DNA from: a virus | Length of the DNA: 64,000 bases | Strand: one strand, 5' to 3' | Virus record (IMG/VR): IMGVR_UViG_3300036818_000070 | Coordinates: 1 to 64,000 of that record | Shown here: positions 39-26,636 of the stretch, piece after piece | Layout of the letters: the number at the start of each line of letters is the position of its first letter | Numbering within the stretch: position 1 is the first letter of the stretch | Notes under the pieces: generated by a model | What the model saw: the letters and a program-made list of their open reading frames with translations, nothing else | Told to the model about the DNA's origin: nothing | The model's database searches: none | Position numbers and translations under genes: made by a program

Positions 39-71
39 CTCAGTAACGACGCCCCGCAAGAGGGCGAATCA

Positions 72-12177: not shown

Positions 12178-12229
12178 AGTGAAGCTCCGTCAGTTTTTCG
12201 GTTGCGAGGGGTTATTCGCTCGCGGAGTG

Positions 12230-12271: not shown

Positions 12272-12277
12272 AGAGTT

Positions 12278-12364
12278 CTACCAGCGCCGCGGCGTTCCGC
12301 TGAGCACGAGCCCAATGAGGAACGCCAGTAGCGCGATGATCGCGATGATCGCCCAGAGAGGCAT
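12278..12364 (-). CDS. 28-aa membrane microprotein
   Basis: ATG (12364-12362) to TAG (12278). Almost the whole product is one hydrophobic helix (LWAIIAIIALLAFLIGLVL) ending in a basic tail PRRW. The start-associated repeat GGAGTCTGGC abuts the ATG with no spacer, and a terminator follows, so this tiny gene has the full signals of its neighbours. Function unknown; small phage membrane peptides include holin and superinfection-exclusion factors. Confidence 0.6.
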   Translation of the reverse strand: MPLWAIIAIIALLAFLIGLVLSGTPRRW

Positions 12365-12423
12365 GCCAGACTCCTGTCCCGGTTGGGGATGGTTCGTCTG
12401 GCACTACCCCGCACGGCGATCAC

Positions 12424-12996
12424 CTACGCGGCCGGTTCCTGGGCGGCCGTCGCGTCCGGCTTGGCGGCAGCGGGCTTCGCCGCGCTCTTGCTGGCGGCCT
12501 TGCGTCGAGCGCTTGCGCGCTTCGCGGGCGCCTTCGGCGCGGGCGTCAGCGCCGGGCGCCGGAATAGCTCCTCAGCCTTGTCCAGCGACTTCAGCTCGTC
12601 CTGGTGGCGCTTGTTGACGGCCGTCGAGTGCTCCCTGGCGCCGACCAGTGCGCGCTCGGCGTCCAGCACGGACTTCTCGGCCGCCTTCAGCTCGTGCTCG
12701 ATGACTTCCTTGCGGGCGCGGATCGCCTGGAGCGGGGTGGCGATCCGCACCTGCTGCTCGGGTACTAGGACGGGCTTCGGCGTTCCGGTGTTGCGCGAGC
12801 GGCTGTTGCGTGAACGGCTGACCGTCCGCGGCTTACTGCCGACCTTGTGACCGTTGTTCCGCATGCGGCGGATGTGCTGGTACACGGCGTTCTCGGTGAT
12901 GCCGAGCGCCGTGGCAATCTCACCGGGCGTCTTGTTGTCGTCCAGTAGCGCCTTGATCTCCTGCTGGCGCTCTGTCAGTTCAGCGGTTGCTGACAT
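12424..12996 (-). CDS. Helix-turn-helix protein with H1-like basic tail
   Basis: 190 residues from ATG 12996 (GAGGAGGA upstream on the minus strand). Residues 5-45 form a helix-turn-helix of the sigma-region-4/LuxR style: LTERQQEIKALLDDNKTPGE, then IATALGITENAVYQHIRRMR. The middle is a coiled-coil-like helix. The last 40 residues are Ala/Lys/Pro-rich (APKAPAKRASARRKAASKS), like histone-H1-type or nucleoid-protein tails. It is probably a DNA-binding regulator; it is the best candidate for a lifestyle regulator near the integrase, but no repressor family is identifiable. Confidence 0.6.
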   Translation of the reverse strand: MSATAELTERQQEIKALLDDNKTPGEIATALGITENAVYQHIRRMRNNGHKVGSKPRTVSRSRNSRSRNTGTPKPVLVPEQQVRIATPLQAIRARKEVIEHELKAAEKSVLDAERALVGAREHSTAVNKRHQDELKSLDKAEELFRRPALTPAPKAPAKRASARRKAASKSAAKPAAAKPDATAAQEPAA

Positions 12997-13056
12997 GTGC
13001 TGGTCCTCCTCGTTGGTTTGATGTTGCACACTACTACAGGGAAGCGGCGCTGGGGG

Positions 13057-13182
13057 TTATTCCGCGAGCGCCTCCTCGGCCTGCTTTACGGTCAGACCGT
13101 AGTTGTCCACTAGCGCCGACACCTGCTCGGCATGTGGGTACTCAAGCTGCCGCAGGAACTGGATCGCCAGCGTCATTGGCAT
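13057..13182 (-). CDS. Small hypothetical protein, 41 aa
   Basis: ATG 13182 to TAA 13057, with GGAGGT 8 bases upstream of the start on the minus strand. It contains two short helices and no motif. It overlaps the end of the next upstream gene by 41 bases. Confidence 0.5.
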   Translation of the reverse strand: MPMTLAIQFLRQLEYPHAEQVSALVDNYGLTVKQAEEALAE

Positions 13183-13561
13183 GGGCTTCTACCTCCTCTC
13201 GGGCAGCGGCAGCGGCTTCTTCGGCCGCCAGGTGGACGCGCAACGCTTCACGCTCGGCCTTCTCGAACTTGAGCGCGGCGTCGGCAAGCTGGTAACTGAA
13301 GGGCTCCAGGACTTGGAGCTGGGTGCGTGCTCCGAACTGTGCGGTGACAGCTTCGGACTGTGGCTCACGCGGGATCATCCACGACCCCGAGCGGCGATGC
13401 ACGTAGATGGGCTCGCTGCCACTGACCGTTACCTGCGCCTGCAAGTAACCCTCACGATGACGGCCGAACCGCAAGATCTGGAACTGCTGTGCCGCGCGGT
13501 CCCAGCGCAGCGCTTCATTGACCGCCCGGTTGACCTCCGAGACGGCTCGACTTGTACTCAT
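13142..13561 (-). CDS. Hypothetical protein with C-terminal Ala/Glu helix
   Basis: 139 residues from ATG 13561, chosen because the start-associated repeat (13564-13573) ends 2 bases upstream. The first 85 residues are beta-rich; the last 50 form a long charged helix (YQLADAALKFEKAEREALRVH...EEAAAAAREE). Family unknown. Confidence 0.6.
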   Translation of the reverse strand: MSTSRAVSEVNRAVNEALRWDRAAQQFQILRFGRHREGYLQAQVTVSGSEPIYVHRRSGSWMIPREPQSEAVTAQFGARTQLQVLEPFSYQLADAALKFEKAEREALRVHLAAEEAAAAAREEVEAHANDAGDPVPAAA

Positions 13562-13739
13562 TCGCCAGACTCCCTTGTTCGATGTTGATGCCGTTCGTGG
13601 ACTCGCCACACCCCCGGCATCGAGGGCAATGAATGCGCAGGCTCGGCTCCCCGATCGTGCCGAGCCCACAACACCTTGGACAGACGACGATCGCCACTCC
13701 GGCGAGCGCGCGACGAAGCAGTAGCTCGCCGCGCGTCAT
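13515..13739 (-). CDS. DnaJ-type cysteine-rich zinc protein
   Basis: 74 residues. CPRCCGLGTIG and CPRCRGCGES reproduce the CxxCxGxG-type knuckles of the DnaJ zinc domain, with two pairs bridged by about 15 residues. The N-terminus overlaps the next gene upstream. Such single-domain proteins are frequent in phages and probably bind RNA, DNA or a partner protein. Confidence 0.55.
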   Translation of the reverse strand: MTRGELLLRRALAGVAIVVCPRCCGLGTIGEPSLRIHCPRCRGCGESTNGINIEQGSLANEYKSSRLGGQPGGQ

Positions 13740-13945
13740 CGCAGAATCACGACCCAGACCAGAAACGCGCCGATCGCGGCGCAGCAGATCTCCTTGCCCT
13801 CCTTCTTGACCTTCGCGTCCGAGCGTGTCGCCAGGACGACGCCGAGCACAAGCCCGATGAACGGGATCACGAGTGCGGTTACCCAGCCCGCGACGATGAG
13901 GCCCTTGTCCGACCGCTCCTGCTCAGTTGTGACGCTGCTCTCCAT
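13736..13945 (-). CDS. Two-helix membrane protein
   Basis: 69 residues from ATG 13945 (GGAGGG upstream). Hydrophobic helices lie at about 16-39 (LIVAGWVTALVIPFIGLVLG) and 53-68, separated by a basic loop KVKKEGKE. Topology is compatible with a holin-like or exclusion protein, but it is far from the lysis cassette. Confidence 0.6.
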   Translation of the reverse strand: MESSVTTEQERSDKGLIVAGWVTALVIPFIGLVLGVVLATRSDAKVKKEGKEICCAAIGAFLVWVVILR

Positions 13946-14420
13946 GAGAACCCTCCGTGGTAGTGGCTGACGTCCCTGTATCGGCACCCCCGCGCCGACC
14001 CCATAACTCTCGCCGCTCGGCTCGACGTACGAGCTTTCCGATCGTCCGTTGCGCTTCCGCGCCGGGCTCCGTGACCTCGGCGATGCCGTGGGCTGCGGCC
14101 TCGGCACCCGATGACCACAGCGGGATGGGCGAGACGTAGTCGAGCGCCTTCTCGACCTCCTCACCGGCAAGTAGGCCGGACATCGCTGCCATGCGCAGCC
14201 CCAGCGACTGGTCCATGTCGTGACAACCGACCCAACCGGCGCACAGGTGACCGTTTTGCTGGTGACAGAAGAATGCTGCCGGAGGCTGAGCGAATGTCTC
14301 GCGATCGAACGGCGGCAGCTTGGCGTACTCGCTGGCATGCCAGACGCCGCTGGGAACATCACGACGGTATGGACATGACGCACACGGATACGGCGCCGGT
14401 CCCTTCACCGCATCGCTCAT
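13923..14420 (-). CDS. DUF6283-type cysteine protein
   Basis: 165 residues from ATG 14420. The segment PCASCPYRRDVPSGVWHASEY, then FFCHQQNGHLCAGWVGCH, matches the conserved pattern I associate with DUF6283 phage proteins: a CxxCPYR start, a W/Y-rich middle and a second Cys/His cluster. This probably binds zinc. Function is not established. Its start overlaps the stop of the following upstream gene. Confidence 0.6.
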   Translation of the reverse strand: MSDAVKGPAPYPCASCPYRRDVPSGVWHASEYAKLPPFDRETFAQPPAAFFCHQQNGHLCAGWVGCHDMDQSLGLRMAAMSGLLAGEEVEKALDYVSPIPLWSSGAEAAAHGIAEVTEPGAEAQRTIGKLVRRAERRELWGRRGGADTGTSATTTEGSHGEQRHN

Positions 14421-15034
14421 GGCGCCGTCCTGTTCGGGTCGTATGTGCGCGTCAGCACCGGGTAGTTGTCGAGCAGTCCGATCTCGTCGGGATGCCACCT
14501 GCCGCGCAGGTCGGCCAGCTCAGCCGGGAGCCGCTCCAAGATCACGCCGCCATCGGTGAGTTCCGCGTGCGCGACGACATACTCGGCGGTAAAGGTGACG
14601 CCGTAGTAGGCCCAGTGGGGATAGTCGAGCACCGGCAGCTCGGGTACGCCTGGTGTGCCGATGCCGGGGCTGTAGCGTGTCTCAACGACGCCGTCGTCGG
14701 GCCCGATACACCATGCGTGCAGCCACGGCGTGCCGCGCCCGAGCGTGCAATAGCCCTGACAGTACGTGAGAGATGGATCGGAGATCGCCGCCACGGAGGC
14801 ATTCTCGAAGCACTGACCCTCCGGGCTGAAGAACTGCTGATAGCCGTCCGGCGTCGGGCGACCCACCCGCAGCTTGCCGTGCTTCAGCACAAGGTCGGCG
14901 CTGCCGCGATAGAGCGGCGGGACCTGCGCTGACGCTGGCCTCCACAGCTCACGCTGCAACTCAAGATCACGCGTAAGCGCCTGTCCGGCGCGATCTTCCG
15001 GCGTGCCAAGGTCGAGGCCACCGAGGAAGCTCAT
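14417..15034 (-). CDS. Conserved phage hypothetical with Cys/His active-site-like motifs
   Basis: 205 residues. It contains CFENASVAAI, YCQGYCTLGRGTPWLHAWCIG and a later YYGVTF. The Cys near the first block and HAW in the second recall the order of catalytic Cys and His in papain/transglutaminase-like folds, and the same block arrangement occurs in many phage proteins of unknown function. Enzymatic activity is only inferred. Confidence 0.5.
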   Translation of the reverse strand: MSFLGGLDLGTPEDRAGQALTRDLELQRELWRPASAQVPPLYRGSADLVLKHGKLRVGRPTPDGYQQFFSPEGQCFENASVAAISDPSLTYCQGYCTLGRGTPWLHAWCIGPDDGVVETRYSPGIGTPGVPELPVLDYPHWAYYGVTFTAEYVVAHAELTDGGVILERLPAELADLRGRWHPDEIGLLDNYPVLTRTYDPNRTAP

Positions 15035-15603
15035 TGTTCCGCATCAATTCCGCGGGGAGCGTTCAGCTCCTCGCTCTCGACGTCGAGCGCACGGTCGCTA
15101 TCGGGGGACGTTGATTGATAGACCGGGCCGGTCGAGATTCCCGCCTGCCACGGACGCTGCCGCGCTTTCGACAGCCGGTCGGGGTCGTAACCGAGGCCGA
15201 CCGCAAGGTTCATCATGTCGCCCTGCTCGCCGACCATCCGCTCGCGGTAGCCGACCTCCAGTTGAATGCCAGCGCCCACCACCCAGAGGTGGGTCTGGTT
15301 GGCTGAGTCCACCAGACGACTCTCGGCCGGGAACAGCTCGATCGCCTCGCGCTCGGCGCCAGCGACCTCATTCTTGATCGCCTGCTTGTGGCGCCAGTCA
15401 TAGACCGGCTCGCGGTCAAGCCGTTTGATGGACAGGTGCAGCGGCCCGTTGCGAGGGCTCTGCCGTGCGCCCTCGATATAGCGCACGAAAACCTCGTACT
15501 CGTCATTGCGCCAGACCTCATCGACACGCTCCCGGCTGTCAAGGACACTGAGATGCTCAGGCACCTCATAGGCTTGTAGTGGTTGCCAGACTCCTGTTGT
15601 CAT
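15031..15603 (-). CDS. DUF7694-type phage protein
   Basis: 190 residues. The core LHLSIKRLDREPVYDWRH, then IKNEV, then ELFPAESRLVDSANQTHLWV is a strongly conserved phage block that I associate with DUF7694. Function unknown. The start-associated repeat GGAGTCTGGC lies inside the first codons (15585-15594, codons 4-7) instead of upstream, which is unlike its neighbours. Confidence 0.6.
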   Translation of the reverse strand: MTTGVWQPLQAYEVPEHLSVLDSRERVDEVWRNDEYEVFVRYIEGARQSPRNGPLHLSIKRLDREPVYDWRHKQAIKNEVAGAEREAIELFPAESRLVDSANQTHLWVVGAGIQLEVGYRERMVGEQGDMMNLAVGLGYDPDRLSKARQRPWQAGISTGPVYQSTSPDSDRALDVESEELNAPRGIDAEQ

Positions 15604-15609
15604 GTGACG

Positions 15610-16230
15610 CTATTTCCATCCCTTCGACCAGTTGTATTGCGCAATGCCCTGCACGATGGCCCAGCAGCACCAGAGGTACTGCCAGTCCCACTCGTTGAAG
15701 TCGAAGTCCCAGGGCTCGTAGATTTGAATGTTGCCGTGCTTGAAGTCGCGGAGACGCTCAATGGCCTCGTGTGCCGAGTCGGGCGCCCCCCAGCTAAATA
15801 CCTGATCTTCGAGCGCCTGATGCAGCGAGCCAGCCTCGTCCGGCTCGTACTCTGACTGCTGCATGTACCACTCCAGCACGCGCGGCTTGAATCGGTCACG
15901 GCTATAGCGGCGGGTGCCGTCTCGCTCATCCGGGTTGACGAGCTTGCCGCTCCAGTAGTCGGGACTGATGCGGACCTCGCCACTGCTGAACCAGTTGAAC
16001 ATGTCCCACGTGCGAGCGAAGGTGTACGCGCCACAGTCGCCGCTGATCGCGAGATGGCCCGGCCATGTCACAAGGTCATAGCCGTAGGCCCACGCGCCTA
16101 GCTCTGAAAAGCGCAGGTGGCGGTAGACACCGTGGTCATGGAGCACGCGCATGCGGTGGTTGGCCGTCTCCTGCTCGAAGCGCTCCTGGATGTGCGCCTC
16201 TTGCCCAAGGTCGGTAGTCAACATCGGCAT
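15610..16230 (-). CDS. Conserved phage hypothetical, aromatic-rich
   Basis: 206 residues. The pattern HRMRVLHDHGVYRHLRF, then YGYDLVTWPGHLAISGDCG, then a W/D-rich tail resembles a widely distributed phage protein of unknown function. The C-terminus is unusually rich in Trp (DFDFNEWDWQYLWCCW). Soluble; no catalytic motif can be named. Confidence 0.55.
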   Translation of the reverse strand: MPMLTTDLGQEAHIQERFEQETANHRMRVLHDHGVYRHLRFSELGAWAYGYDLVTWPGHLAISGDCGAYTFARTWDMFNWFSSGEVRISPDYWSGKLVNPDERDGTRRYSRDRFKPRVLEWYMQQSEYEPDEAGSLHQALEDQVFSWGAPDSAHEAIERLRDFKHGNIQIYEPWDFDFNEWDWQYLWCCWAIVQGIAQYNWSKGWK

Positions 16231-16241
16231 AAGCTCAGCTC

Positions 16242-16895
16242 CTAGTACGGACAGTTGCCGAGCAGGTCCTCGGCCTCCTGCATCGCAGAGTCCAGAAGGT
16301 CGGCGTTCTCAGCCTCCACGCGGGCGGTCTCGTCGCGCTCGTGGTCGGACCGGCGGCCCTCTAGGTCCTCCTCTAGCTCGGCGAGCTGGTCCTCGTCAAG
16401 CTCGGCCGAGTTGTCAACGCCGAACAGGTCCAGGCATAGCTCCGCGCGCTCGCCGCCCTCATCGAAGTCCTCGGGCTCGATCTCCTCCTCGGGCGAGAAG
16501 GACTCAAGCTCGGACTGCCAGCTCTCCAGTTCGTCGGCGCGCTCGGCGTTCTCGCCTTGGCCACCGAACGACTCGGCGGCCTCGCGGTACTCCTCAACGA
16601 CGGAGCTGACGCTCTCTGCGACCCGCTCGACGGCTTCCCGCACCTGCTCCACCATCTTGGCCTGCCCGATATCGTCCTCGGCCGCCTCGATCTCTGCGTA
16701 GACCTCGGACATCTTGCCCTGGGTCAGCTCTGAGCGCTTCGGGTAGTGGTCAGAGCACCGGAAGTGCGCGCCGCCGTAGCGGAACTCCCAGGTGAAGTAC
16801 TTCTCGCCGGGCTGGATGACATGGCCACAGCCGGACGCACCACAGCGGCGCTCTCGGCCAGCCTTGTTCTTGGTGTGGGTATGAACGCGGGGCAT
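16242..16895 (-). CDS. Zinc-ribbon plus acidic coiled-coil protein
   Basis: 217 residues from ATG 16895, with the start-associated repeat 2 bases upstream (16898-16907). The N-terminal 60 residues hold CGASGCGHVIQPGEKYFTW, then RCSDH, a zinc-ribbon arrangement followed by KRSELTQ. The remaining 150 residues are Glu/Asp-rich and helical, probably a coiled coil. Confidence 0.6.
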   Translation of the reverse strand: MPRVHTHTKNKAGRERRCGASGCGHVIQPGEKYFTWEFRYGGAHFRCSDHYPKRSELTQGKMSEVYAEIEAAEDDIGQAKMVEQVREAVERVAESVSSVVEEYREAAESFGGQGENAERADELESWQSELESFSPEEEIEPEDFDEGGERAELCLDLFGVDNSAELDEDQLAELEEDLEGRRSDHERDETARVEAENADLLDSAMQEAEDLLGNCPY

Positions 16896-16922
16896 TCGCC
16901 AGACTCCTCGTTGCTTCGGTGG

Positions 16923-17240
16923 TTAGGTAAGTTCGATCGGCTCCGGGGCGCCCTCGCGGTTCGCCCAGAAGTCGTCCTGCGCGCGTCGCACGGCCGCCAG
17001 CGCGGCCCTCAGCGATATGTCGTAGGTCTTGGCCATGCGCTTCGCGCTGCGTCGCGCCAGCCGGTCACGGTCGCCACGCTGGATCAGCGCATGACACGGC
17101 GGACACGCCGCCCAACCGCCAGCGCTACCCCAGTCGGGGATCTCCGATGGTGTCTTGATGATGAAGTCGCGCGCCGGGTATGCGTAGCGCACGTCCGGCG
17201 ACGAGCAGAAGTCACACTCTCCGTTCGGGTCCTTCTTCAT
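16923..17240 (-). CDS. Zinc-finger hypothetical protein
   Basis: 105 residues from ATG 17240, which overlaps the stop of the upstream gene as ATGA and has GGAGGG in front. CDFCSS and CPPCHALIQRGDRDRL form two Cys pairs of an HNH-like or treble-clef finger, followed by a basic helix. No HNH histidine pair is evident, so nuclease activity is not claimed. Confidence 0.6.
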   Translation of the reverse strand: MKKDPNGECDFCSSPDVRYAYPARDFIIKTPSEIPDWGSAGGWAACPPCHALIQRGDRDRLARRSAKRMAKTYDISLRAALAAVRRAQDDFWANREGAPEPIELT

Positions 17241-17704
17241 GCCGCAACCCTCCGGTTCGCCCACGGGTCAGGCTCCGGACGACGCCGACCACCCTCCCCG
17301 TCGTCCTGACTAGGCGGCCAACTCTGCGCGCTGTCCGCCTTCACGTACCAGACCCACACACCGGTCCAGCCCTCAATCGGCGTGGACGCTCCCGTCTCCT
17401 CGTCCACGACGTAGACGATGCTGCGACGAATGCCGAGTAGCTCGAAGCCATAGTCGGTGGGCACGACGACCACACGTTCGTGCGCGTGGATGTCGTTAGG
17501 CTTGACGAACCGTGCGTAGTGACCGCGATAGCGACGTTCGTAGGTGACGCAGCCAGCCTGCATCCAGCGGTGATCTGGCCCGTGGTCGGTCCTGTCGGCC
17601 AGGTGCTTGCCTTGGCGGTGCGTCGCGGCCAGGTAGTGACGCTGGAACCGTGAGAGTGACGCCCACCACTCGGGTGTGGCGCCGGGGCCGTAGGTGATCT
17701 TCAT
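17237..17704 (-). CDS. Hypothetical protein, basic/aromatic
   Basis: 155 residues from ATG 17704, overlapping the RuvB-like stop as ATGA. The N-terminus is basic and His-rich; the second half is beta-rich. The ATGA overlaps tie it to the RuvB-like gene. No family was recognised. Confidence 0.6.
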   Translation of the reverse strand: MKITYGPGATPEWWASLSRFQRHYLAATHRQGKHLADRTDHGPDHRWMQAGCVTYERRYRGHYARFVKPNDIHAHERVVVVPTDYGFELLGIRRSIVYVVDEETGASTPIEGWTGVWVWYVKADSAQSWPPSQDDGEGGRRRPEPDPWANRRVAA

Positions 17705-18873
17705 TGAGCCAGCTCCAGTGCTCGTGTGATTCCGTCTTCGGTGAGTTGGCGACCGCCGTGCGTGACACACACGAGGCCCTCGCCGATAAGGTAGGGCTCG
17801 ACAAACAGCGAGACAGCCTTGGTGTCGCGCGAGTGGCCGAGCGCGGTGGCGATCGTGTTGACCGACGCCTGGTAGACGACCTCGCCGCGGCCCTTGGTTC
17901 GGCGCGAGCCGAGGAGCGTCGTAAGCATGCGCTGCATGTCGATCGTCAAGCCGTCCCACGTGCAGCCGTTCAGGTCGAAGACGACCTCGTCGGCCACGTG
18001 AGCGTCGAGTATCGCGCCGGGCGCCATGATGTCCTGCGCATTGCGCACGAACGTGTTGAGCTGGCGCGGGATGCGACGCGATGCACGGCCGAGCCGGATG
18101 GCGGCGACGTCGGTGATCGTTAGGCCGAGCGCGTGAGCGTTGGCTATGGCCATGTCGCGCATGTCCTCCCACGTGTAGGGGTCGAGCACTAGCCGCAGCG
18201 GGAAGCGGTTCAGGAACGCCTCGGGCAGCAGGCCCTCGTCGGTGGTGGCGCCGACGAACGTGACAGCAGGGAAGGGCAACATGTGACCCTCAACCGGTAG
18301 TCGGCGGTCCTCCATGATGTGGTAGAAGTCCTCCGGATCGGCAGCTTGCGAGACGCCGCGTCGATCTCCACTGACTTGCTGGTGGATCTCGTCCACGATG
18401 ACGACGTCGCCGTCCTTGAGCTGGCGCTGCATCTGGCGCAGCACGGCGTGCGTGACTGGTGCCTTGACTTGGTACACCGTGCGGCCGAGTTCGTGTGCGG
18501 CGACCTGAGCGATCGTCGTCTTGCCGGTGCCAGACGCGCCAGTGACCATTGTGTGACTGAGTGGACGGCCGGACGCCTGAACGTTGGCGACAATGCGCGC
18601 CATCAACGTCTTCAGACGGTGCTGCCCGATCATCTGGTCGAACGTCGCCGGACGCAGCCGGTTGGCTGAGCGGTCATCGAACTCCAGCGGGCGCAGCTCG
18701 ACGTGCTCGTCGCCATTGCGCAGATTGGCAGCGGCGCGCTGGTAGGCGGCGTGATAGGCGATCTCGCCGTAGCCGGTTGGCAGCGGCACGGCCGGTTGGC
18801 AGCGGCGCGCTTCGCGGATCGCGTGAGCCGCTGCGTGGTGCCCTGCGTGCTCAGCTACTGACTCGTGGGACAT
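17701..18873 (-). CDS. RuvB-like AAA+ branch-migration ATPase
   Basis: 390 residues. A N-terminal extension of about 70 residues precedes RPATFDQMIGQHRLKTLMARI (the RuvB entry motif RPxxxxxxIGQ). Walker A GASGTGKTT lies at 112-120, Walker B VVIVDEIHQQ at 157-166, a MED...LPVEG segment follows, then sensor 1 FVGATTDEGLL and the RFPLRLVLDPY arginine region. A C-terminal lid contains RRIPRQLNTFVRNAQD. RuvB pumps DNA through Holliday junctions. No RuvA or RuvC is seen, but a RusA-like resolvase is at 2.5 kb. The branch-migration role is inferred from this similarity. Confidence 0.75.
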   Translation of the reverse strand: MSHESVAEHAGHHAAAHAIREARRCQPAVPLPTGYGEIAYHAAYQRAAANLRNGDEHVELRPLEFDDRSANRLRPATFDQMIGQHRLKTLMARIVANVQASGRPLSHTMVTGASGTGKTTIAQVAAHELGRTVYQVKAPVTHAVLRQMQRQLKDGDVVIVDEIHQQVSGDRRGVSQAADPEDFYHIMEDRRLPVEGHMLPFPAVTFVGATTDEGLLPEAFLNRFPLRLVLDPYTWEDMRDMAIANAHALGLTITDVAAIRLGRASRRIPRQLNTFVRNAQDIMAPGAILDAHVADEVVFDLNGCTWDGLTIDMQRMLTTLLGSRRTKGRGEVVYQASVNTIATALGHSRDTKAVSLFVEPYLIGEGLVCVTHGGRQLTEDGITRALELAQ

Positions 18874-18935
18874 GGCGCCTCACTCAGGAATGGATGGGGT
18901 AGAAGTGTAGCATCGTGCGACAGAAGATGGGACTG

Positions 18936-19919
18936 CTAAACGCCCAGCAGTTGGCGGAGTTGAGCGTTCAGCACGTCCAGGTGAGCGGTCACGTCGTCCT
19001 GCTCCTCGCGGAGCGCTTCGGCGTACTGCGCAGCGCGCCGCTTGAGCTGCTCAAGGCGGCGGAAGTGGTGCTGGCGAACGTTGTCACGAACGCCGCGCTT
19101 GCGGTCCTCGCGCAACAGGTCGCGAACCTCGCCGATCTCCTCCTCGATGTCGGCGAGACTGTTGGCCACGTGCTGGCGACGGATCATGTCACGCTCGGTC
19201 GCCCCGTCGGCCATCGGCACCGAGTACAGACCGGCGCTGGCGTGGTCGGGGTACATCTCCGACAGGAAGTCGGCGAGCGATGCGACCTGATCGGCGTAAC
19301 GGGCAAGCACGAAGTACACACCGCCAGCCTTGCCGCGCATGTTCTCGCCGCTCAGCCCGACCTTGCCCGCCTGCTCGTCGTCGTCGTTCTTGAGGTAGTC
19401 GCGGACGAGCGAGCGCACTTTAGCGCCAGTGATCGCCTTGACATTGGCCTCGAACCGCTCCTGGATCGACTCCATGATCGGCAGGACGTCCTTGCGCGGG
19501 ATCTCGCCGAGGGCGTCGAAGTCGGTGTCACGACGCTCGGGGTGGTACTTGACTCGCAGCGCCTTGGGGTAGCTGACGAGCTGCTCGTCGGCGTCCTTGA
19601 CGACGCGGCTGAGCTGGTAGACGATGTAGCCGTCGTTGGTGGGGATGTCGCGGACGTCCGTTTCCATCACCGTGCCGTCGGGTAGCGCGATGCGGCCCTC
19701 CTCGCCACGCACGGCGCGACGGAAAGCGTTGACCTCGCCCGGCGCCTTCGGCAGCGGCTTGGGGTCGAGCCCCGAGAGCTGCCAGACTCGGCGCAGCTTG
19801 CGCACCGAGACGTCCACGTCTGGCACCGAGTACCAAACGATGTAGCCGAGCGGCGTTACGCCACTGTCGGCGCTGATCGCGACCATCTGGCGCGGATCAG
19901 TCAGTGTGGTGGGAGTCAT
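18936..19919 (-). CDS. Conserved hypothetical of the MoxR-VWA block (DUF6744-like?)
   Basis: 327 residues. Residues 20-85 (YIVWYSVPDVDVSVRKLRRVW, then LPKAPGEVNAFRRAVR) are followed by a beta-rich middle and a long coiled-coil C-terminus. It recalls DUF6744-type phage proteins, but this is from memory and uncertain. It lies between the VWA gene and the RuvB-like gene on the same strand with small gaps. A structural or adaptor role with the AAA+/VWA pair is an inference from position. Confidence 0.5.
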   Translation of the reverse strand: MTPTTLTDPRQMVAISADSGVTPLGYIVWYSVPDVDVSVRKLRRVWQLSGLDPKPLPKAPGEVNAFRRAVRGEEGRIALPDGTVMETDVRDIPTNDGYIVYQLSRVVKDADEQLVSYPKALRVKYHPERRDTDFDALGEIPRKDVLPIMESIQERFEANVKAITGAKVRSLVRDYLKNDDDEQAGKVGLSGENMRGKAGGVYFVLARYADQVASLADFLSEMYPDHASAGLYSVPMADGATERDMIRRQHVANSLADIEEEIGEVRDLLREDRKRGVRDNVRQHHFRRLEQLKRRAAQYAEALREEQDDVTAHLDVLNAQLRQLLGV

Positions 19920-19984
19920 CAGCGGTTAGCTCCTGTTACGGATGAATGGAAGTTGCAGCGTAACAGCCGCTGCGGTCGATCTGG

Positions 19985-21676
19985 TCAGGTGATGTGGGTG
20001 GCCAGCTCGGCGGTTGCCTGGCTGGGGTCCTGTAGCTCGAAGTCGTGCACTGGCACGACCGCCGAGCAGTAGTCGGCTAGGTACTTGAAGGGGCCGTTAC
20101 CGATCGCGATGCCGAACAGTCGCACGCCCATCTCTATGAGCTGGTCGCGCAGCCGCTTGTCCTCGGGACCGAAGCTGGCCTCGCCGTCGCCGATCATCAC
20201 AAGATCGGCCTTACGGAAGTCGGCAGCGTCCTCCATGATCTTCACGGCGCCAGCGACACCTTGGATTGGTGATGTGCCGCCGCCGAAGAAGTGCGACGCC
20301 ATGTCAACGATCTCCTGCGCGCCGAGCGCCTTCTTCGCGGGCATGACCCACGCCTCGACCTGTCGGGCGTCAGCGAACTCCACGCAAGCGAAGTCACGCT
20401 TCTCCAGCCGCGCGATGTGAAGAAGACACATGGCCACTGCGCGAGCCCAGATGTTGCGCTCGCCGTTCATTGAGTAGCTGCCGTCCACGACGACCACAAT
20501 CGGGCCGCGTCCGGCATGCTCCTCGCCGACGGTGGCGAAGCACAGCAGCTCCTGGCTGGCGTAGCGGACAAGAAAGTCGTCCTCGGTGTCCTCGTCGGCC
20601 AGCAGCGCCAGCTCAGCTGGCAGCACGCGCTGAAGGTTGTCGCCGAACTCAACGTCAACGATCTCGTCGTTGCCGCCGACGACTCGCTTGGACCGCTGGA
20701 AGCGGATGTCACGGTCAAGCCGACCGAAGCGCTCAGCCATCGCTCGGAGCTGCGGGTTGTTCGCCCACATCTCAGCGATCGTCAGCGCCTGCTCGGGCGA
20801 CTCGTACGTCGGCTCTCCGGCGCCGAAGCCAGCACCGAAGCTCGGGATGCCAGCGGCGCCGCTTGCGGCCTCGCCAGCCGCAGCAGCAGCAGCCTGGATC
20901 GCCTGCATCGCAGCCGCCGACATCGGCGTCTGGCTTGCGGCAGCGCCGAGCGCCGCCTGCTGTGCTGCGCGTCGCTCCTGCACCGCTGCGCCGATCTGCT
21001 GCTTGAGCACGTCGGGGACAGGCAGTCCCTGCTGGTGCAGGTCTTTGGCTTGCTGGCGCATGAAGTCGAGCTGGTCGCTTGCGTCCTGCGCCTGCTGCGC
21101 GTGCTGCTGATACTCCTCGGCCTCGCGCATCTGCTGCTCAAGCTCGTCGCCGAGCACTTGCTTCAGTGCGTTGACGGCGGCCATTGTCGCGATAGCTGCC
21201 GTGGTCGGATTGTCGCGCGTGATGTTGCGCGCCTGCGCGTGATCGTCGGTGGTCATCAGCTTCGGCATGACACGCTTGTGCAGTTCGACGCCCGGATCAA
21301 CGGGCTCGACCAGCTCGGGCATGTCATGCGTGTGATAGCTGTAGAACACGTCGCGCGTCAGCTTGTCCCAGACGCTATAGGTGGGCGCGTTCTCTCGTGC
21401 CTCGCGAGCGGCCTTCATCGCCTGCTGATAGGCGACGAACTCGTCGGGCGACGCTGTGGTCATGTCGATCGGGTCAGGGTCCGGGACATCTGGCGTGACC
21501 ACTGGAGCGTCCTCGATCGCGATGCGACGAAACCTGGGGGAGTCGTCGGTGTAGTTGTCGAACTCCATCGAGTCGATCGAATCGTGGGTCACCACGCTAT
21601 CGGGCAACTTCAGTCGCGACGTACCGATCTTGCGACCGCCGCGACCAAGAAAGTCGGTCAGTGAAATGATCGGCAC
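19985..21676 (-). CDS. VWA-domain protein (ViaA/CoxE-like)
   Basis: 563 residues. Residues 1-390 hold an acidic region, a helical stretch with Ala/Gln-rich coiled coil (about 150-270) and the segment FGRLDRDIRFQRSKR. The VWA domain is C-terminal: MIDAS DGSYS at 398-402, GGGTSP later and IGDGEASF for the remaining metal ligands. This is the layout of ViaA and CoxE partners of MoxR ATPases, in which the VWA domain presents a metal-dependent binding surface to client proteins. The MoxR-like gene lies 200 bases upstream on the same strand. Confidence 0.8.
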   Translation of the reverse strand: MPIISLTDFLGRGGRKIGTSRLKLPDSVVTHDSIDSMEFDNYTDDSPRFRRIAIEDAPVVTPDVPDPDPIDMTTASPDEFVAYQQAMKAAREARENAPTYSVWDKLTRDVFYSYHTHDMPELVEPVDPGVELHKRVMPKLMTTDDHAQARNITRDNPTTAAIATMAAVNALKQVLGDELEQQMREAEEYQQHAQQAQDASDQLDFMRQQAKDLHQQGLPVPDVLKQQIGAAVQERRAAQQAALGAAASQTPMSAAAMQAIQAAAAAAGEAASGAAGIPSFGAGFGAGEPTYESPEQALTIAEMWANNPQLRAMAERFGRLDRDIRFQRSKRVVGGNDEIVDVEFGDNLQRVLPAELALLADEDTEDDFLVRYASQELLCFATVGEEHAGRGPIVVVVDGSYSMNGERNIWARAVAMCLLHIARLEKRDFACVEFADARQVEAWVMPAKKALGAQEIVDMASHFFGGGTSPIQGVAGAVKIMEDAADFRKADLVMIGDGEASFGPEDKRLRDQLIEMGVRLFGIAIGNGPFKYLADYCSAVVPVHDFELQDPSQATAELATHIT

Positions 21677-21679
21677 GGG

Positions 21680-21880
21680 TCAGTCCTCGCTATAGGGTTG
21701 TAGGGGTTGGCGGTCGATGTAATGGCGCCAGGCGTCCTGCGCGCCGCGATTGAATGGCGTGGCACTCATGCTGCGCAGGTGCTGTTCGAGCCCGTGCCTG
21801 GCGACGGCGAGCGACGGTTGCTCGTGCGCGAGCCACTCGCACTGCGCGTCGTAGCCACGCGCGTATTCGTCGCGTGCCAT
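21680..21880 (-). CDS. 66-aa protein between MoxR and VWA genes
   Basis: ATG 21880 with GAGGAC upstream on the minus strand; it ends 4 bases before the VWA start. Charged and helical, with many His, Arg and Gln residues; no motif. Its fixed place between two partner genes suggests a small accessory of that system. Confidence 0.6.
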   Translation of the reverse strand: MARDEYARGYDAQCEWLAHEQPSLAVARHGLEQHLRSMSATPFNRGAQDAWRHYIDRQPLQPYSED

Positions 21881-21885
21881 GCGTC

Positions 21886-23106
21886 TCAGTCCTCGTCGTC
21901 GTCCGCGCCGGAGAGCTGTTGCTGCGCCCACTCGTCAATGCGCTTGATCTCGGACGCGACCTCTTCGAGCATCGTGACGTCCTGGCCCTGGTCTTTGCCG
22001 GTGCGGATCTGCGAGTTGACCTCCTTGCCCAGCGTTCGTGCCTGGCGGATCAGCTTGAAGCCTTCGCCGAGCAGGTCGCCGGTCGCAGTGTCGTCGCCCT
22101 GGGCCACGACCAACTTCGGGCGCAGCTCCTCCATCTGGGCGAGAATCGGTTCGAGTGCCTCGCGCGCACGCTCAGCCTTGCGGGTGAACACGCTGGCGAA
22201 CTCCAGCACGACCTCGCGGGCGCTGTCGGCGTCGTCGGGGTGGTTCCAGGCCATGTGCTGGCACGGCAGGAAGTCATCGGCCACAACATCGTCGCGCCCG
22301 TGCATCCATGCGTGAGCCTTGACGACCTTCCACATCTGACCAATGCGGCGCTGTGATGGCGGATGACCGGCCTCGGTCCACTTCTGCTGCGCGTCCACCA
22401 TGATCTGGCGGCACGCGTCGTTGACCGTGACCTTGTGGATCTCGGTACGGATCGCCTTGATCTCGTCCAGCGTCAGCGGCTCAAGGTTCGATGTGTCCAG
22501 CCCGTTGAGCTGGAAGTCGAGCTGAAGATCGGTGACAGCACGCCGACCCTCTGGCGTGCGCACTTCGCGCACGAACTTGGTGATGCCGATACGGTCACGG
22601 AACGCCTGCAAGTCCTCGCGGTCCGGTAGTTCGTTGCTCGACATGAAGATCGTCAGGAGCTGCGAGCAGTCGAGCACCGTGCCGCCGGTCTTCAGCACAC
22701 GGTTCGCGAGCAGGTCGAGCAGCGGGTTGAGCATCGGCGGCGACGCCTTGAAGATCTCGTCCGCGTAGCCGAAGTTCGCCGACGGCAGGTAGCCATCGGT
22801 CAATCGCGCGATCTGACCAGCCTTCATCGCCATGATGTCGCGCGGACCGAGCACCTCGTCGGCACTCTGGTCCTTCGCGAAAAGGTGCGAGAACAGCTTC
22901 ATGTCGGTCAGGCAGTGATCGACCAGACCTTCGATCATCCACGTCTTGCCGGTGCCAGGAGGGCCGAGGAAGAGCGTGTCAACGCCCGAGACGAGCGCGA
23001 CCATTGCCAGGTCGATGTCCTCGTTGCGCTCGACGTTGTGAGCCTTGAGCCAGCCCGTGATTTCGTTGAATCGGGTGAGCATGGGGGATGCAGCGGTTGT
23101 GGCCAT
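21886..23106 (-). CDS. MoxR/RavA-type AAA+ ATPase
   Basis: 406 residues. Walker A GPPGTGKT at 48-55; then HLFAKDQSADEVLGPRDI; GYLPSANFGYADEIFKASPPMLNPLL with Walker B near 112-117; sensor 1 SSNELP near 155; then a lid and a C-terminal coiled coil. This order, including LPSA...DEIFK and SNELP, is characteristic of RavA-like MoxR proteins, which act as chaperone-like unfoldases together with VWA partners. It heads the leftward MoxR-VWA block and carries the start-associated repeat 4 bases upstream (23111-23120). Confidence 0.88.
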   Translation of the reverse strand: MATTAASPMLTRFNEITGWLKAHNVERNEDIDLAMVALVSGVDTLFLGPPGTGKTWMIEGLVDHCLTDMKLFSHLFAKDQSADEVLGPRDIMAMKAGQIARLTDGYLPSANFGYADEIFKASPPMLNPLLDLLANRVLKTGGTVLDCSQLLTIFMSSNELPDREDLQAFRDRIGITKFVREVRTPEGRRAVTDLQLDFQLNGLDTSNLEPLTLDEIKAIRTEIHKVTVNDACRQIMVDAQQKWTEAGHPPSQRRIGQMWKVVKAHAWMHGRDDVVADDFLPCQHMAWNHPDDADSAREVVLEFASVFTRKAERAREALEPILAQMEELRPKLVVAQGDDTATGDLLGEGFKLIRQARTLGKEVNSQIRTGKDQGQDVTMLEEVASEIKRIDEWAQQQLSGADDDED

Positions 23107-23131
23107 TGTCGCCAGACTCCAGTTCGTTTGT

Positions 23132-23153
23132 TGTAGTGTAGCGCTACGCTACA
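23132..23153 (-). promoter_or_regulatory. Imperfect palindrome and possible promoter before the MoxR gene
   Basis: TGTAG-T-GTAGC (23132-23142) faces GCTAC-G-CTACA (23143-23153), matching at 10 of 11 positions. On the minus strand it contains TACACT, a plausible -10 hexamer, about 30 bases ahead of the MoxR start. A TACACT within GCTACACT also lies upstream of the RuvB-like gene near 18907. This suggests an operator-promoter overlap. Confidence 0.4.
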
Positions 23154-23859
23154 GCCGGATGGATGTTTCGTGTGACTGTGCGAGGGAGCCGACTGTCACA
23201 ACGTCGGCGCAGGCCCAGTGAAACGCCTCGGCCTGCTCGCGTTCGATCAGCGTGCGCTGCCAGTTAGCGGATGACAGCCCCTCGTGGCGCACGCCGCCGA
23301 TGTCCTCCGACCACACGTCGCCGATGAAGCCCCAGCACGAATCGAGCGTGCCTCCGTCCTCGTCTTTGACCACGTAGCCGTAGACCTCGCCGTTGTACCA
23401 GTGCGCGAACTCCTCGGCGTTCGCTTCGACATAGCTGCGAGCCATCGCCGGGTCGCCGGAGAATTGACCGAGCAGCTCGTCGGCCGTGAACATCCACGCC
23501 AGGTTCGCGCGCTCGGCATCGTCGGTCACGTCGAGCGACGCGGTACCCGAACCGTGGTTGTTCGACGCCCAGTCGAGCAGCACGACAAGTTCGACGTCGT
23601 GGTCGGCGCCGAGCGCCTGTTCGAGTGTGCGCGCCTGCCAGTCTTCGCGCTCGAAGTCATCGCTGACGTCTATCTCAAGCTCCGGCTCGGCGATCTCCTC
23701 GAAACCGTCCGGCACGTGGCCGTTATAGCTGTGATCGCCCCAGCCGACGCGCTTGCCGACCTCGTCGCGCTCGACTAGCGGGTTGTCCATGCCGCCCTCG
23801 TCGTAGTACAGCTCGACCGTGAGCCCTGCGTGCTCGAAGGTGTCGATGGGCTCCATCAC
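23149..23859 (-). CDS. Acidic conserved phage hypothetical
   Basis: 236 residues, pI clearly acidic. The segment EEFAHWYNGEVYGYVVKDEDG, followed by SCWGFIGD, resembles a recurrent phage block of unknown function. Two adjacent ATG codons open the frame, overlapping the previous stop. Confidence 0.55.
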   Translation of the reverse strand: MMEPIDTFEHAGLTVELYYDEGGMDNPLVERDEVGKRVGWGDHSYNGHVPDGFEEIAEPELEIDVSDDFEREDWQARTLEQALGADHDVELVVLLDWASNNHGSGTASLDVTDDAERANLAWMFTADELLGQFSGDPAMARSYVEANAEEFAHWYNGEVYGYVVKDEDGGTLDSCWGFIGDVWSEDIGGVRHEGLSSANWQRTLIEREQAEAFHWACADVVTVGSLAQSHETSIRL

Positions 23860-24191
23860 TCGTCCTCCGGATCATCGGCAAACTCCAGCACCGTGCGGAA
23901 GTTCGCGTAGTCATCGTCGCTGCCCTCGCGAAAATGCCGGAAGACTCCGTAGTGGTTGCCCGGTTCGTCAACAGCCGGGTCGCCGGTCAGGCCGAGATAG
24001 ACGAACACGTTGCTCAGCGGCTGGTCGTAATCGTCGTCCTCGCTGGACGGATTGAAGTACAGGTACGCGGGCGTCTCAACACTCGGGTGCGTGCAGATGT
24101 AGCCCGCGCGGCCACGTTGGTCGATGTATGGGGTATAGGTGGTCCCGTGCTCGTCGGTAGTGGCGCGAGACGGAAAGCGCGTGATCTTCAT
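23856..24191 (-). CDS. Hypothetical protein
   Basis: 111 residues; ATG 24191 has the start-associated repeat (24196-24205) 4 bases upstream. Acidic C-terminus; central segment VFVYLGLTGDPAVDEP. No family was recognised. Confidence 0.6.
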   Translation of the reverse strand: MKITRFPSRATTDEHGTTYTPYIDQRGRAGYICTHPSVETPAYLYFNPSSEDDDYDQPLSNVFVYLGLTGDPAVDEPGNHYGVFRHFREGSDDDYANFRTVLEFADDPEDE

Positions 24192-24215
24192 TAGTGCCAG
24201 ACTCCAGTTCGCTTG

Positions 24216-24380
24216 TTAGATCGGTTCGACGTCGCGGAAGACGGTCCAGTTGGTCAGCCAATCGCGGCCGGTCATTACCCACACGGCGCGCACATCGTCA
24301 ACGCGTTCGATGTCCTCGACCTCGGCCTCGTAGGTGAGTTCGACCACCGACACGACGCGCTCGGTGATGCGGACCTTCAC
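24216..24380 (-). CDS. Small hypothetical protein, 54 aa
   Basis: GTG 24380 overlaps the stop of the upstream gene as GTGA; TAA at 24216. Mixed strands and helix rich in Val, Glu, Asp and Trp. Accepted on overlap and coding-like composition. Confidence 0.5.
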   Translation of the reverse strand: MKVRITERVVSVVELTYEAEVEDIERVDDVRAVWVMTGRDWLTNWTVFRDVEPI

Positions 24381-24643
24381 GACGTCACCAGTCCGTCGAT
24401 GTAGTCCTTGGCGCTCCTAACGGCTTGGTGCCAATGGGCAACCTCGTCCCGAGCAAGCGCGAGATCATGCGCGCCGGAGTTGGGTTCGTAGATCGACCAC
24501 TCCCACACCTTGACCAGCACGGACGATCGGGTCATCACGAGGCGGGTCTCGATCAGGTGGCCGCGATACTCGCCAGTCAGGTAAGTCGGCGAGCCGGTCG
24601 CGGACGGTTCGGCCATGCGCCACTCGATGTCGTGGGCGAGCAC
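24377..24643 (-). CDS. Hypothetical protein, 88 aa
   Basis: GTG 24643 is chosen because GGGGTGG lies 5 bases upstream on the minus strand; ATG within codon 10 is an alternative. Trp-rich centre (VKVWEWSIYEP). No recognised domain. Confidence 0.5.
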   Translation of the reverse strand: MLAHDIEWRMAEPSATGSPTYLTGEYRGHLIETRLVMTRSSVLVKVWEWSIYEPNSGAHDLALARDEVAHWHQAVRSAKDYIDGLVTS

Positions 24644-24645
24644 CG

Positions 24646-25113
24646 CTACCACCCCGAGCGCGTGAGTTCGCGGCCGTCGCGGTGGATGAGTCGCCGACCG
24701 CCGTTGCTCGGGCTGCCGACGTAGTGCACGTCCGGTTCGCGGTCGGGTAGGTCGCACATCACGCGGAGTTGGTCGCGTTCGATCATGCGCAGCTCAATCG
24801 CGAAGTCGATCGGTCGTGACTCTCGCGCAACCCACTCGCCGCCGATGCGGCGCATGTGCCGATGAATGGCGCCGTTCGCTTGCGCGAGCGCCAGCGCGCC
24901 GCTGACGCCGCTCTGGTGCTGCGTGGTGGTCATCGAGAACTTGTGCAGCGTCTGACGGAACACCACGAGCCGCGAGCCGACGAGCTGTCGGTGGCAGATC
25001 GGCTCCTCGTAGCTGTAGAGCGCCAGACCGTGGGGCGCGTAGCGGATCGACAGGCTGTTCGCATGGCCGTGCTCGCCAGCGATAAATGCCTCGATCACGT
25101 CGTCGTTCGTCAT
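24646..25113 (-). CDS. Hypothetical protein, 155 aa
   Basis: ATG 25113 with the start-associated repeat (25120-25129) 6 bases upstream. The middle resembles a beta sheet with basic loops; an Arg-rich C-terminus follows. Function unknown. Confidence 0.55.
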   Translation of the reverse strand: MTNDDVIEAFIAGEHGHANSLSIRYAPHGLALYSYEEPICHRQLVGSRLVVFRQTLHKFSMTTTQHQSGVSGALALAQANGAIHRHMRRIGGEWVARESRPIDFAIELRMIERDQLRVMCDLPDREPDVHYVGSPSNGGRRLIHRDGRELTRSGW

Positions 25114-25129
25114 TGGGTCGCCAGACTCC

Positions 25130-25417
25130 TTAGTCGATGAGGGATTCGCCACAGTGCCCGCAATACGCGCCGTCTTCTTCGGCGTTACAGGCCAAGATGA
25201 CCTTCGGGAAGCCGCCCGAATCGAAGCTCTGTTCGTCGTCGCGGTCGATGCCGAATGCCTGCGCAATCTCGCCGAGATTCGCCTCGACGTTCATGCCGAT
25301 GGCAGTCGCCCAACCGTCGAAGCGCTGGCCAGGTCCCGTCGGCAGCGCCTCGATCACACAGAACGGGCAGTGGACGTCGGCTTGGTAGATGTAGCCAACG
25401 ATCGTGTCGCTTCGCAT
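25130..25417 (-). CDS. Zinc-ribbon hypothetical protein
   Basis: 95 residues; ATG 25417 with the start-associated repeat (25423-25432) 5 bases upstream. CPFC near residue 17 and CGHC near the C-terminus form a split zinc ribbon around an acidic middle. The opening VGYIYQADVHCPFCVIEAL is reminiscent of a common small phage protein. Confidence 0.6.
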   Translation of the reverse strand: MRSDTIVGYIYQADVHCPFCVIEALPTGPGQRFDGWATAIGMNVEANLGEIAQAFGIDRDDEQSFDSGGFPKVILACNAEEDGAYCGHCGESLID

Positions 25418-25450
25418 GGGTCGCCAGACTCCTGTTCGTAGGTGTGACAG

Positions 25451-25876
25451 TTACAGGCGGTAGTAGTAACTGTCGCCGTCGTACTCGATCAACGTGTAAT
25501 CGGTCGCCAGTTCGTTGGCTGCACGCTCCCAGTCGATACAGTGGAGTGGCCAGCCTGCCTGTGGGTCGATCGCGCCGATGTCCTCCGCCAGCTCGCGGGC
25601 GTAGTCTTGGAAGCCGCTTTCGGGGATCAGCGTCACCCCGTAGTTGTCCGCCGCCCACTCAAGGTCGTCGGGTCCCACATCGACGTTGGCGGTCAGTTCG
25701 CGGGCCAGCTCGACATACTTCTCAACCTGCTCGGCTTGCTCTGGCTGCGCCAGGAAGCGCTCCGTGGCATCGCTCAGTTCGCCCAAAGACATACCTTCGG
25801 TGTTGGGCACATTGCCCGACATCTCTTGGACGAGTTCGCGCCACTCGCTGGCGAGTTCGCGTAGGTCGAGCATCAC
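25451..25876 (-). CDS. Acidic ArdA-like phage protein
   Basis: 141 residues, strongly acidic. The C-terminal part LIPESGFQDYARELAEDIGA, then WPLHCIDWERAANELATDY, resembles the DNA-mimicking ArdA antirestriction fold and a common phage relative of it. True ArdA proteins are somewhat longer with a second acidic lobe, so an anti-restriction role is only suggested. Confidence 0.45.
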   Translation of the reverse strand: MMLDLRELASEWRELVQEMSGNVPNTEGMSLGELSDATERFLAQPEQAEQVEKYVELARELTANVDVGPDDLEWAADNYGVTLIPESGFQDYARELAEDIGAIDPQAGWPLHCIDWERAANELATDYTLIEYDGDSYYYRL

Positions 25877-26220
25877 AGTTCGCCTCCGTCGGCGACGGTC
25901 GCCCAGTGGTCGTACTCAGCGCGCGCGGAGATGAACACGTCGCGTGCCTCCTGTTCGGAGTCACACTCCTGCAAGGTAACGAAGCCCTGCGAATCGGTGC
26001 GGACAATCCAGCGTCCGAGGAGCGTGAAGAAGCCGGTAGGCGCTTCCGTCTCGCCTGCGGCGGCGTCGATCTCGCCATGCAGCTCCAGCTCGCAGATCGC
26101 CTCCGCGAGCGCCGGATCGCTACAGCGCTCAAACCGCCCCGGCATGCCGTCAGCGGCACGTTCGAGGCCATGCTGCTCGGCCATGCTAAGCACGGCGTCG
26201 CGCGTGAGTTCGCTGCTCAT
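25873..26220 (-). CDS. Hypothetical protein, 115 aa
   Basis: ATG 26220 with the start-associated repeat (26224-26233) 3 bases upstream. It is the first gene of the main leftward string. Its segment GFFTLLGRWIVRTDSQGFVTL reads as two beta strands and the C-terminus is a helix. Function unknown. Confidence 0.55.
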   Translation of the reverse strand: MSSELTRDAVLSMAEQHGLERAADGMPGRFERCSDPALAEAICELELHGEIDAAAGETEAPTGFFTLLGRWIVRTDSQGFVTLQECDSEQEARDVFISARAEYDHWATVADGGEL

Positions 26221-26233
26221 AGTCGCCAGACTC

Positions 26234-26636
26234 CTTGTAAGTGTTCGCTGCATCATGTCACGGCTCGGCGCGGAATGCCACGCACTCCGCCCGTCTAAAA
26301 GTCGCCAACGAGCGGAGGCACGTGAACCGTGGTCCACGGGCCTCGCTCGCTACCTGCTGCTCTGTTCGTGGTCGGCGGTGAAGCGTTCACACAGAACCGG
26401 GCAACTCTCGACTGATCGCGCCCTAGTGCGGACGTCTAATTGCGAGACTGTGTGCGTTCGCTCCGGTGCCTATTTGGCCCGGTAGATAGCTCGCGGGCGC
26501 CAACGCAGTCTGTTCGCTGCGCTCGCGTCCGCGTGGCTACGCAAGTTCACTGCTGTTCGCTCTGTTCGTCGTGCGCGAGGCGCACACGAGCGAGCCCGGC
26601 CGCGCGAGCCCCCGTGGGCACTCGCGCGGCGCTTGG
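26234..26636. other. Non-coding region with hairpins
   Basis: About 400 bases without a supported gene, between the head of the main leftward block and an isolated leftward gene. It contains a terminator-like stem at its right end and a weaker structure GAGGC...CCGTGG-T-CCACGG...GCCTC near 26312-26343. TGTTCG is repeated several times. The promoter of the leftward block probably lies here, but no clear -35/-10 pair could be picked. Confidence 0.4.
26599..26630 (-). terminator. 10-bp GC-rich hairpin after a leftward gene
   Basis: GCCGCGCGAG (26599-26608) pairs exactly with CTCGCGCGGC (26621-26630). It begins 7 bases beyond the stop of the 26637-26924 gene. There is no T tract. Confidence 0.5.

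What the first reader, a model, noticed from the sequence alone, without database searches (positions are those of the whole stretch)
12365..26233. A start-associated sequence, GGAGTCTGGC, precedes at least eight leftward genes
An identical 10-mer sits directly before start codons of unrelated genes (28-aa membrane peptide, zinc protein, MoxR ATPase and others). Eleven exact copies are found in total; about 0.1 would be expected by chance under even base composition. Its extension past GGAG argues for more than ribosome binding, like the start-associated sequences of cluster K mycobacteriophages but with another sequence.
Basis: partly seen in the sequence, partly recalled or inferred. Interest (0 to 1): 0.8.

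Follow-up and report, generated by a model that had tools for sequence, protein, structure and literature searches.

The report
Phage start-associated sequence in Solirubrobacterales prophage
A temperate virus of Solirubrobacterales soil bacteria puts the same ten letters, GGAGTCTGGC, in front of eight otherwise unrelated genes, as a standard "start reading here" signal, which adds another lineage to a little-understood phage feature known from a few other virus groups.

Summary
GGAGTCTGGC occurs 11 times in the window (0.29 expected) and a 12th time at 79782 of the 80,165-base record. Nine copies are leftward. Eight of these lie 0-6 nt before the ATG of unrelated leftward genes; the ninth lies just inside a gene. 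It is the most over-represented 10-mer of the genome. Leftward starts match it 10/10 or at most 7/10, and the flanks do not match, so all ten bases appear constrained and copied gene starts are excluded. All eight genes have an upstream gap of at least 16 nt; coupled genes lack it. Mycobacteriophage Anaya, run as a control, gives the same signature for its cluster K start-associated sequence. The record is a prophage in the tmRNA gene of a Solirubrobacterales host; host genomes hold the 10-mer only 0-4 times. Four distant relatives lack it: three keep CTGGAG before the MoxR gene, the fourth has its own start sequence, AATCGGAGGTT, four times before ATG. New member of a known kind.

The parts
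26225..26234 (-). GGAGTCTGGC, 4 nt before ATG of gene 25873-26220
25423..25432 (-). GGAGTCTGGC, 5 nt before ATG of gene 25130-25417
25120..25129 (-). GGAGTCTGGC, 6 nt before ATG of gene 24646-25113; directly follows the TAA of the upstream gene
24196..24205 (-). GGAGTCTGGC, 4 nt before ATG of gene 23856-24191, preceded by GCGAACT
23111..23120 (-). GGAGTCTGGC, 4 nt before ATG of the MoxR-type ATPase gene 21886-23106
   Evidence: (Pfam bpMoxR 5.7e-32)
23128..23150 (-). promoter/operator-like dyad TGTAGCGTAGCGCTACA with TACACT, just upstream of the MoxR copy; similar dyads precede MoxR, RuvB-like or HTH genes in relatives G001-G003
16898..16907 (-). GGAGTCTGGC, 2 nt before ATG of gene 16242-16895 (cysteine-rich N-terminus)
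15585..15594 (-). GGAGTCTGGC inside the first codons of gene 15031-15603 (ATGACAACAGGAGTCTGGC); not before a start
13564..13573 (-). GGAGTCTGGC, 2 nt before ATG of gene 13142-13558 (homologs in G002 and G003)
12365..12374 (-). GGAGTCTGGC directly abutting the ATG of gene 12278-12364 (28-aa membrane peptide); leader folds into a hairpin that covers SD and AUG
29571..29580 (+). GGAGTCTGGC in the leader of the rightward operon, downstream of dyad TGTGGTAGTGTGCCACA (29534); followed by a 22-codon GTG ORF (29588-29656) that overlaps the next gene's start
5658..5667 (+). GGAGTCTGGC in a 302-base intergenic stretch upstream of a strong hairpin; no start codon close by
1..40 (+). 3' end of the host tmRNA gene, att core GCCGTCTCCACT at 29-40 (other copy at record 79874-79885)
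10784..26924 (-). leftward block: integrase (11152-12177), HTH (12424-12996), RuvB-like (17701-18789), DUF6744 (18936-19919), VWA (19985-21676), MoxR (21886-23106) and small unknown genes

Best explanation
GGAGTCTGGC is a start-associated sequence acting at the RNA level in a temperate phage of Solirubrobacterales. Its GGAG is the Shine-Dalgarno element (shown by position, spacing and the host 16S tail). The fixed TCTGGC fills the spacer up to the AUG. It marks cistrons of the leftward non-structural operon that must start translation on their own, while neighbours with overlapping or abutting ends are translationally coupled. Inferred: all ten bases are kept because a sequence-specific factor reads them at the initiation site, most likely a phage-encoded RNA-binding protein, or the 30S subunit in some non-anti-SD contact, so that this set of genes is translated as one group.
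For: Top over-represented 10-mer of the whole record, 12 against 0.29 expected. Eight of nine leftward copies end 0-6 nt before an ATG, while such positions make up 0.56% of the window. Leftward starts match 10/10 or at most 7/10, with no 8-9/10 intermediates. 40-nt flanks are 28-30% identical against 27% for random pairs, so the motif is not hitch-hiking on copied DNA. All eight genes have upstream gaps of at least 16 nt and none of the 13 starts with smaller gaps has it. Leaders are A/C-rich and mostly no more structured than shuffles. Six Solirubrobacter genomes of 6.6-9.3 Mb hold 0-4 copies. The host 16S tail CACCUCCUUUCU pairs only with the (A)GGAG part. Anaya, the cluster K control, has the same anatomy. 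Relative G237 has an independent start sequence, AATCGGAGGTT, four times in 85 kb, all before ATG.
Against: No trans factor is identified. Relatives G001-G003 carry orthologous genes without TCTGGC, so the function is either lineage-specific or dispensable. Four of the 12 copies are not clearly at a start. Five leftward starts with gaps of at least 16 nt lack the motif. No expression data exist. Gene starts are my own calls, whose scoring gives a small bonus to GGAG upstream.
Confidence: 0.55

Rival explanations
1. A plain strong ribosome-binding site that spread as a ready-made cassette with newly acquired genes (recombination at gene boundaries), with no special reader.
For: Six of the eight motif genes have no homolog in the relatives, against 7 of 19 other leftward genes (Fisher p = 0.10). 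The motif is absent from relatives.
Against: Flanks show no shared DNA beyond the ten bases; old unselected copies would have drifted, and 8-9/10 versions are missing. Core genes such as MoxR carry it too. Other strong RBSs in the same operon have different spacers.
Confidence: 0.25
2. A DNA site for a phage repressor or anti-termination factor (stoperator-like) that sits in intergenic gaps because space is short.
For: Asymmetric, mostly one orientation along a leftward operon; the + copies at 5658 and 29571 are intergenic without a clear start; copy 29571 follows a dyad operator.
Against: Fixed register with the start codon (0-6 nt), includes the SD, absent from coupled starts. The phage group already has separate dyad elements that look like operators (TGTRG..CYACA, AACTNNAGTT). 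Published stoperators are not tied to start codons (PMC4351075).
Confidence: 0.13
3. The leader pairs with an internal part of 16S rRNA: AGGAGTCTGG is a perfect 10-nt antisense of CCAGACUCCU (h13/h14).
For: Of 205 distinct GGAGN5 words on the minus strand only GGAGTCTGG is complementary to host 16S.
Against: Post hoc match at about the 0.5% level. That rRNA is already base-paired (h13/h14, from general knowledge). The last C does not pair. The other start-associated sequences (cluster K, EF, G237) have only 6-7 nt of complementarity.
Confidence: 0.04
4. Chance or duplication of gene starts.
For: None beyond the small number of copies.
Against: 0 of 100 shuffles reach 11 copies; flanks are unrelated.
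Confidence: 0.01

Closest known systems
Start-associated sequence (SAS) of cluster K mycobacteriophages, GGGATAGGAGCCC (Pope et al. 2011, PMC3203893)
   Same: Highly conserved sequence in the RBS position of many unrelated non-structural genes, longer than the SD, mostly one orientation, 0-8 nt before ATG, at genes with an upstream gap, a few exceptions not at starts, host genome lacks it.
   Different: Other sequence; no GGG...CCC ends; the constant part lies only 3' of GGAG; 10 bp; 12 copies; not conserved among the relatives found; host is Solirubrobacterales.
SAS of Microbacterium cluster EF phages (AnnaSerena), GGGAAAGGACCCC (PMC7302621)
   Same: Ten near-identical motifs at the RBS position, each with an upstream extended element.
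   Different: Other sequence; every EF copy has the extended element, here only 23120 and 29571 have a clear upstream dyad.
ESAS of cluster K (17-bp inverted repeats with a SigA-like promoter; PMC3203893, PMC11373665)
   Same: A dyad with a promoter-like hexamer just upstream of the start-associated sequence at MoxR and at 29571.
   Different: Arms are TGTRGC/GCYACA and shorter; present in relatives that lack GGAGTCTGGC.
Stoperators of cluster A and 17-bp repeats of cluster O mycobacteriophages (PMC4351075)
   Same: Short dispersed repeats in phage genomes.
   Different: Not tied to start codons; GGAGTCTGGC is. The AACTNNAGTT element noticed here is nearer to that type.

Membership tests
phage start-associated sequence (SAS) | many near-identical copies directly before start codons of unrelated genes | tested here: met
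   8 of 12 copies 0-6 nt before ATG
phage start-associated sequence (SAS) | conservation extends beyond the Shine-Dalgarno pairing region | tested here: met
   TCTGGC invariant in 8/8 and unable to pair with the host anti-SD
phage start-associated sequence (SAS) | restricted to the non-structural part, mostly one orientation | tested here: met
   9 of 12 on the minus strand in 12.3-26.3 kb; none at structural-gene starts
phage start-associated sequence (SAS) | associated with genes that have an upstream intergenic gap | tested here: met
   all 8 have gaps of at least 16 nt; 0 of 13 starts with smaller gaps
phage start-associated sequence (SAS) | rare in the host genome | tested here: met
   0-4 copies in six Solirubrobacter genomes
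phage start-associated sequence (SAS) | conserved across related phages of the same cluster | tested here: inconclusive
   no exact copy in the four distant relatives G001-G003 and G237, which are too diverged to count as the same cluster; no close relative was available
cluster K / EF SAS (the specific families) | 13-bp GGGNNNNNNNCCC consensus | tested here: not met
   sequence is GGAGTCTGGC with variable flanks
extended SAS (ESAS) | inverted repeat with promoter upstream of about half of the copies | tested here: inconclusive
   clear dyads at 23132 and 29534 only; promoters not tested
stoperator (cluster A) | bound by the immunity repressor and silences transcription | not testable with these tools
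   needs a binding or expression assay

The most novel reading that the evidence does not exclude
Probability: 0.25. Interest if true: 0.75.

Novelty: new member of a known kind. Interest (0 to 1): 0.47.

Why it matters
The role of start-associated sequences has been open since 2011. In the papers found here they are described from cluster K mycobacteriophages and cluster EF Microbacterium phages. An example in a prophage of a different actinobacterial class, with a different sequence and with relatives that lack it or carry another one, suggests that such sequences arise and turn over repeatedly. The constant part here lies only 3' of the SD, which makes a simple reporter test of "more than ribosome binding" possible and narrows the search for a reader to genes that differ between these phages.

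Tried and rejected
Host RBS consensus: rejected, since host genomes hold 0-4 copies. Extended anti-SD pairing: rejected from the 16S tail. Internal 16S pairing: kept only as a weak rival. Duplicated gene starts: rejected. Common RNA fold of the leaders: none; only the 12374 leader is strongly folded. An attP-spanning gene started by the 79782 copy: the TTG ORF would span att (179 codons in the circle) but scores as non-coding in every frame and has no convincing homolog, so dropped. GAACTGGAGT as the start sequence of G001: most of its copies are in-gene occurrences, not at starts. Prophage relatives in bacterial genomes: none found. Phage records: no DNA match; terminase and capsid match only one mangrove-soil phage at 25-31%. 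Rfam: nothing.

Full report
WHAT WAS CHECKED. GGAGTCTGGC has 11 exact copies in the window; 100 dinucleotide shuffles average 0.29 (maximum 3). The window belongs to an 80,165-base virus record, whose remaining part holds one more copy at 79782; the reversed motif occurs 0 times. In a de novo count over the whole record it is the most over-represented 10-mer (12 against 0.29 expected). Nine copies are on the minus strand between 12365 and 26234. Eight of them end 0-6 nt before an ATG of a leftward gene. The ninth, 15585, lies within the first codons of gene 15031-15603.

ANATOMY. Leftward starts are split cleanly: they match the 10-mer 10/10 or at most 7/10. The 40 bases on either side are no more alike than random sequence, so the copies are not duplicated gene starts. 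All eight genes have an upstream gap of at least 16 nt. None of the 13 leftward starts with a smaller gap (mostly overlaps) carries the motif, while five starts with larger gaps do without it. The leaders are A/C-rich and mostly no more structured than shuffles. The exception is the 28-aa membrane peptide gene, where GCCAGAC pairs with GUCUGGC and hides the SD and AUG. The downstream genes are unrelated: MoxR-type ATPase, a cysteine-rich protein, a membrane peptide and unknowns.

WHERE IT IS. Bases 1-40 of the window are exactly the 3' end of the tmRNA gene of Solirubrobacterales. The core GCCGTCTCCACT recurs at 79874, followed by what appears to be host DNA. The record is therefore read as a prophage in ssrA, and the leftward block holds its integrase. 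Six Solirubrobacter genomes hold the 10-mer 0-4 times, so it is not a host RBS. The host 16S ends in CACCUCCUUUCU; only the (A)GGAG part can pair. AGGAGTCTGG is, however, a perfect antisense of an internal 16S stretch (h13/h14). Only 1 of 205 comparable words is, but the other start-associated sequences show nothing similar; I regard it as coincidence.

RELATIVES. Four distant relatives share genes of the leftward module: G001 (67.6 kb), G002 (82.4 kb; its two ends share sequence), G003 (63.6 kb) and G237 (85 kb). None has an exact copy. At the orthologous MoxR gene G002 and G003 read AACTGGAG and G001 CTGGAGG, without TCTGGC. G003 has one near-copy, GAACTGGAGTCTGAC before an ATG, but the ORF behind it is doubtful. 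G237 has its own repeated start sequence: AATCGGAGGTT four times, all leftward, all directly before ATG (VWA and DUF6744 genes by gene order and size, and two small genes), and ATCGGAGGTT occurs nowhere else in the five records. Start-associated sequences thus appear to arise in this group with different sequences. No closer relative was found in viral contigs, phage records or 232 genomes of the host order.

COMPARISON WITH THE KNOWN KIND. Cluster K mycobacteriophages carry GGGATAGGAGCCC and Microbacterium cluster EF phages GGGAAAGGACCCC in the same position. As a control, phage Anaya run through the same analysis gives 12 exact copies, an exact-or-absent split, one orientation, 2-8 nt before the start, at genes with an upstream gap. 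The present motif meets every positional criterion; it fails the sequence consensus of those clusters, and conservation within its own cluster could not be tested for want of close relatives. Upstream of the MoxR copy and of the + copy 29571 lies a dyad with promoter-like bases (TGTRGC...GCYACA). It recurs in front of MoxR, RuvB-like and HTH genes of the relatives, reminiscent of the extended element of cluster K, which contains a promoter and an inverted repeat.

MECHANISM. Shown: the SD is part of the motif; it is used only at starts with room for their own initiation site; and all ten bases are constant while their surroundings are not. Inferred: selection acts on the full 10-mer through something that reads it at the start site, more likely on RNA than DNA because of the fixed register with AUG.

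CAVEATS. Gene calls are from a simple codon-usage script of mine with a small RBS bonus; the eight starts are also supported by reading frame and, for two, by homologs. The relatives are distant. Four copies (5658, 15585, 29571, 79782) are not clearly start-associated.

Noticed in passing
window 1-40 and record 79874-79885 (L009): Prophage in the tmRNA (ssrA) gene of a Solirubrobacterales host; GCTACCG repeats beside both att ends look like integrase arm-type sites.
   Followed up: partly
window 48846 and 52036; L130 2979, 12386, 15351; L131 4230; L132 8411: Box GGCGTANATTA (and close variants) about 5-10 nt before start codons of structural-region genes in this phage and relatives; looks like a phage late promoter giving leaderless or near-leaderless mRNAs.
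   Followed up: no
window 4959, 5514, 27071; G001-G003 (L010, L178, L136, L180, L137, L138 and others): Dispersed palindrome AACTNNAGTT (often AACTGAAGTT), 7-9 copies in each of three relatives against about 0-0.2 in shuffles, in genes and between them; operator or stoperator candidate.
   Followed up: partly
window 23132, 29534; L136 10501, 14670; L138 8737, 13209; L178 6022; L010 17256: Dyad TGTRGCANNRTGCYACA upstream of MoxR, RuvB-like and other early genes; likely promoter/operator of the phage group.
   Followed up: partly
window 12278-12414 (-): 28-aa membrane peptide gene whose leader hairpin (GUGCCAGAC/GUCUGGCAU) covers SD and AUG; possible small toxin or holin-like peptide under translational control.
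   Followed up: partly
L131 134-2923 and L132 4866-7601: Terminase genes of two relatives are about 330-350 codons longer than the window's; intein-like insertions.
   Followed up: no
window 17701-23106 (-): Conserved module MoxR ATPase + VWA protein + DUF6744 + RuvB-like ATPase in this phage and its relatives; unusual for a temperate phage operon.
   Followed up: no
window 5582-5883: 302-base intergenic stretch with a strong hairpin (GAACCCGA...TTCGGGTTTC) downstream of the + copy 5658; possible small RNA or terminator.
   Followed up: partly
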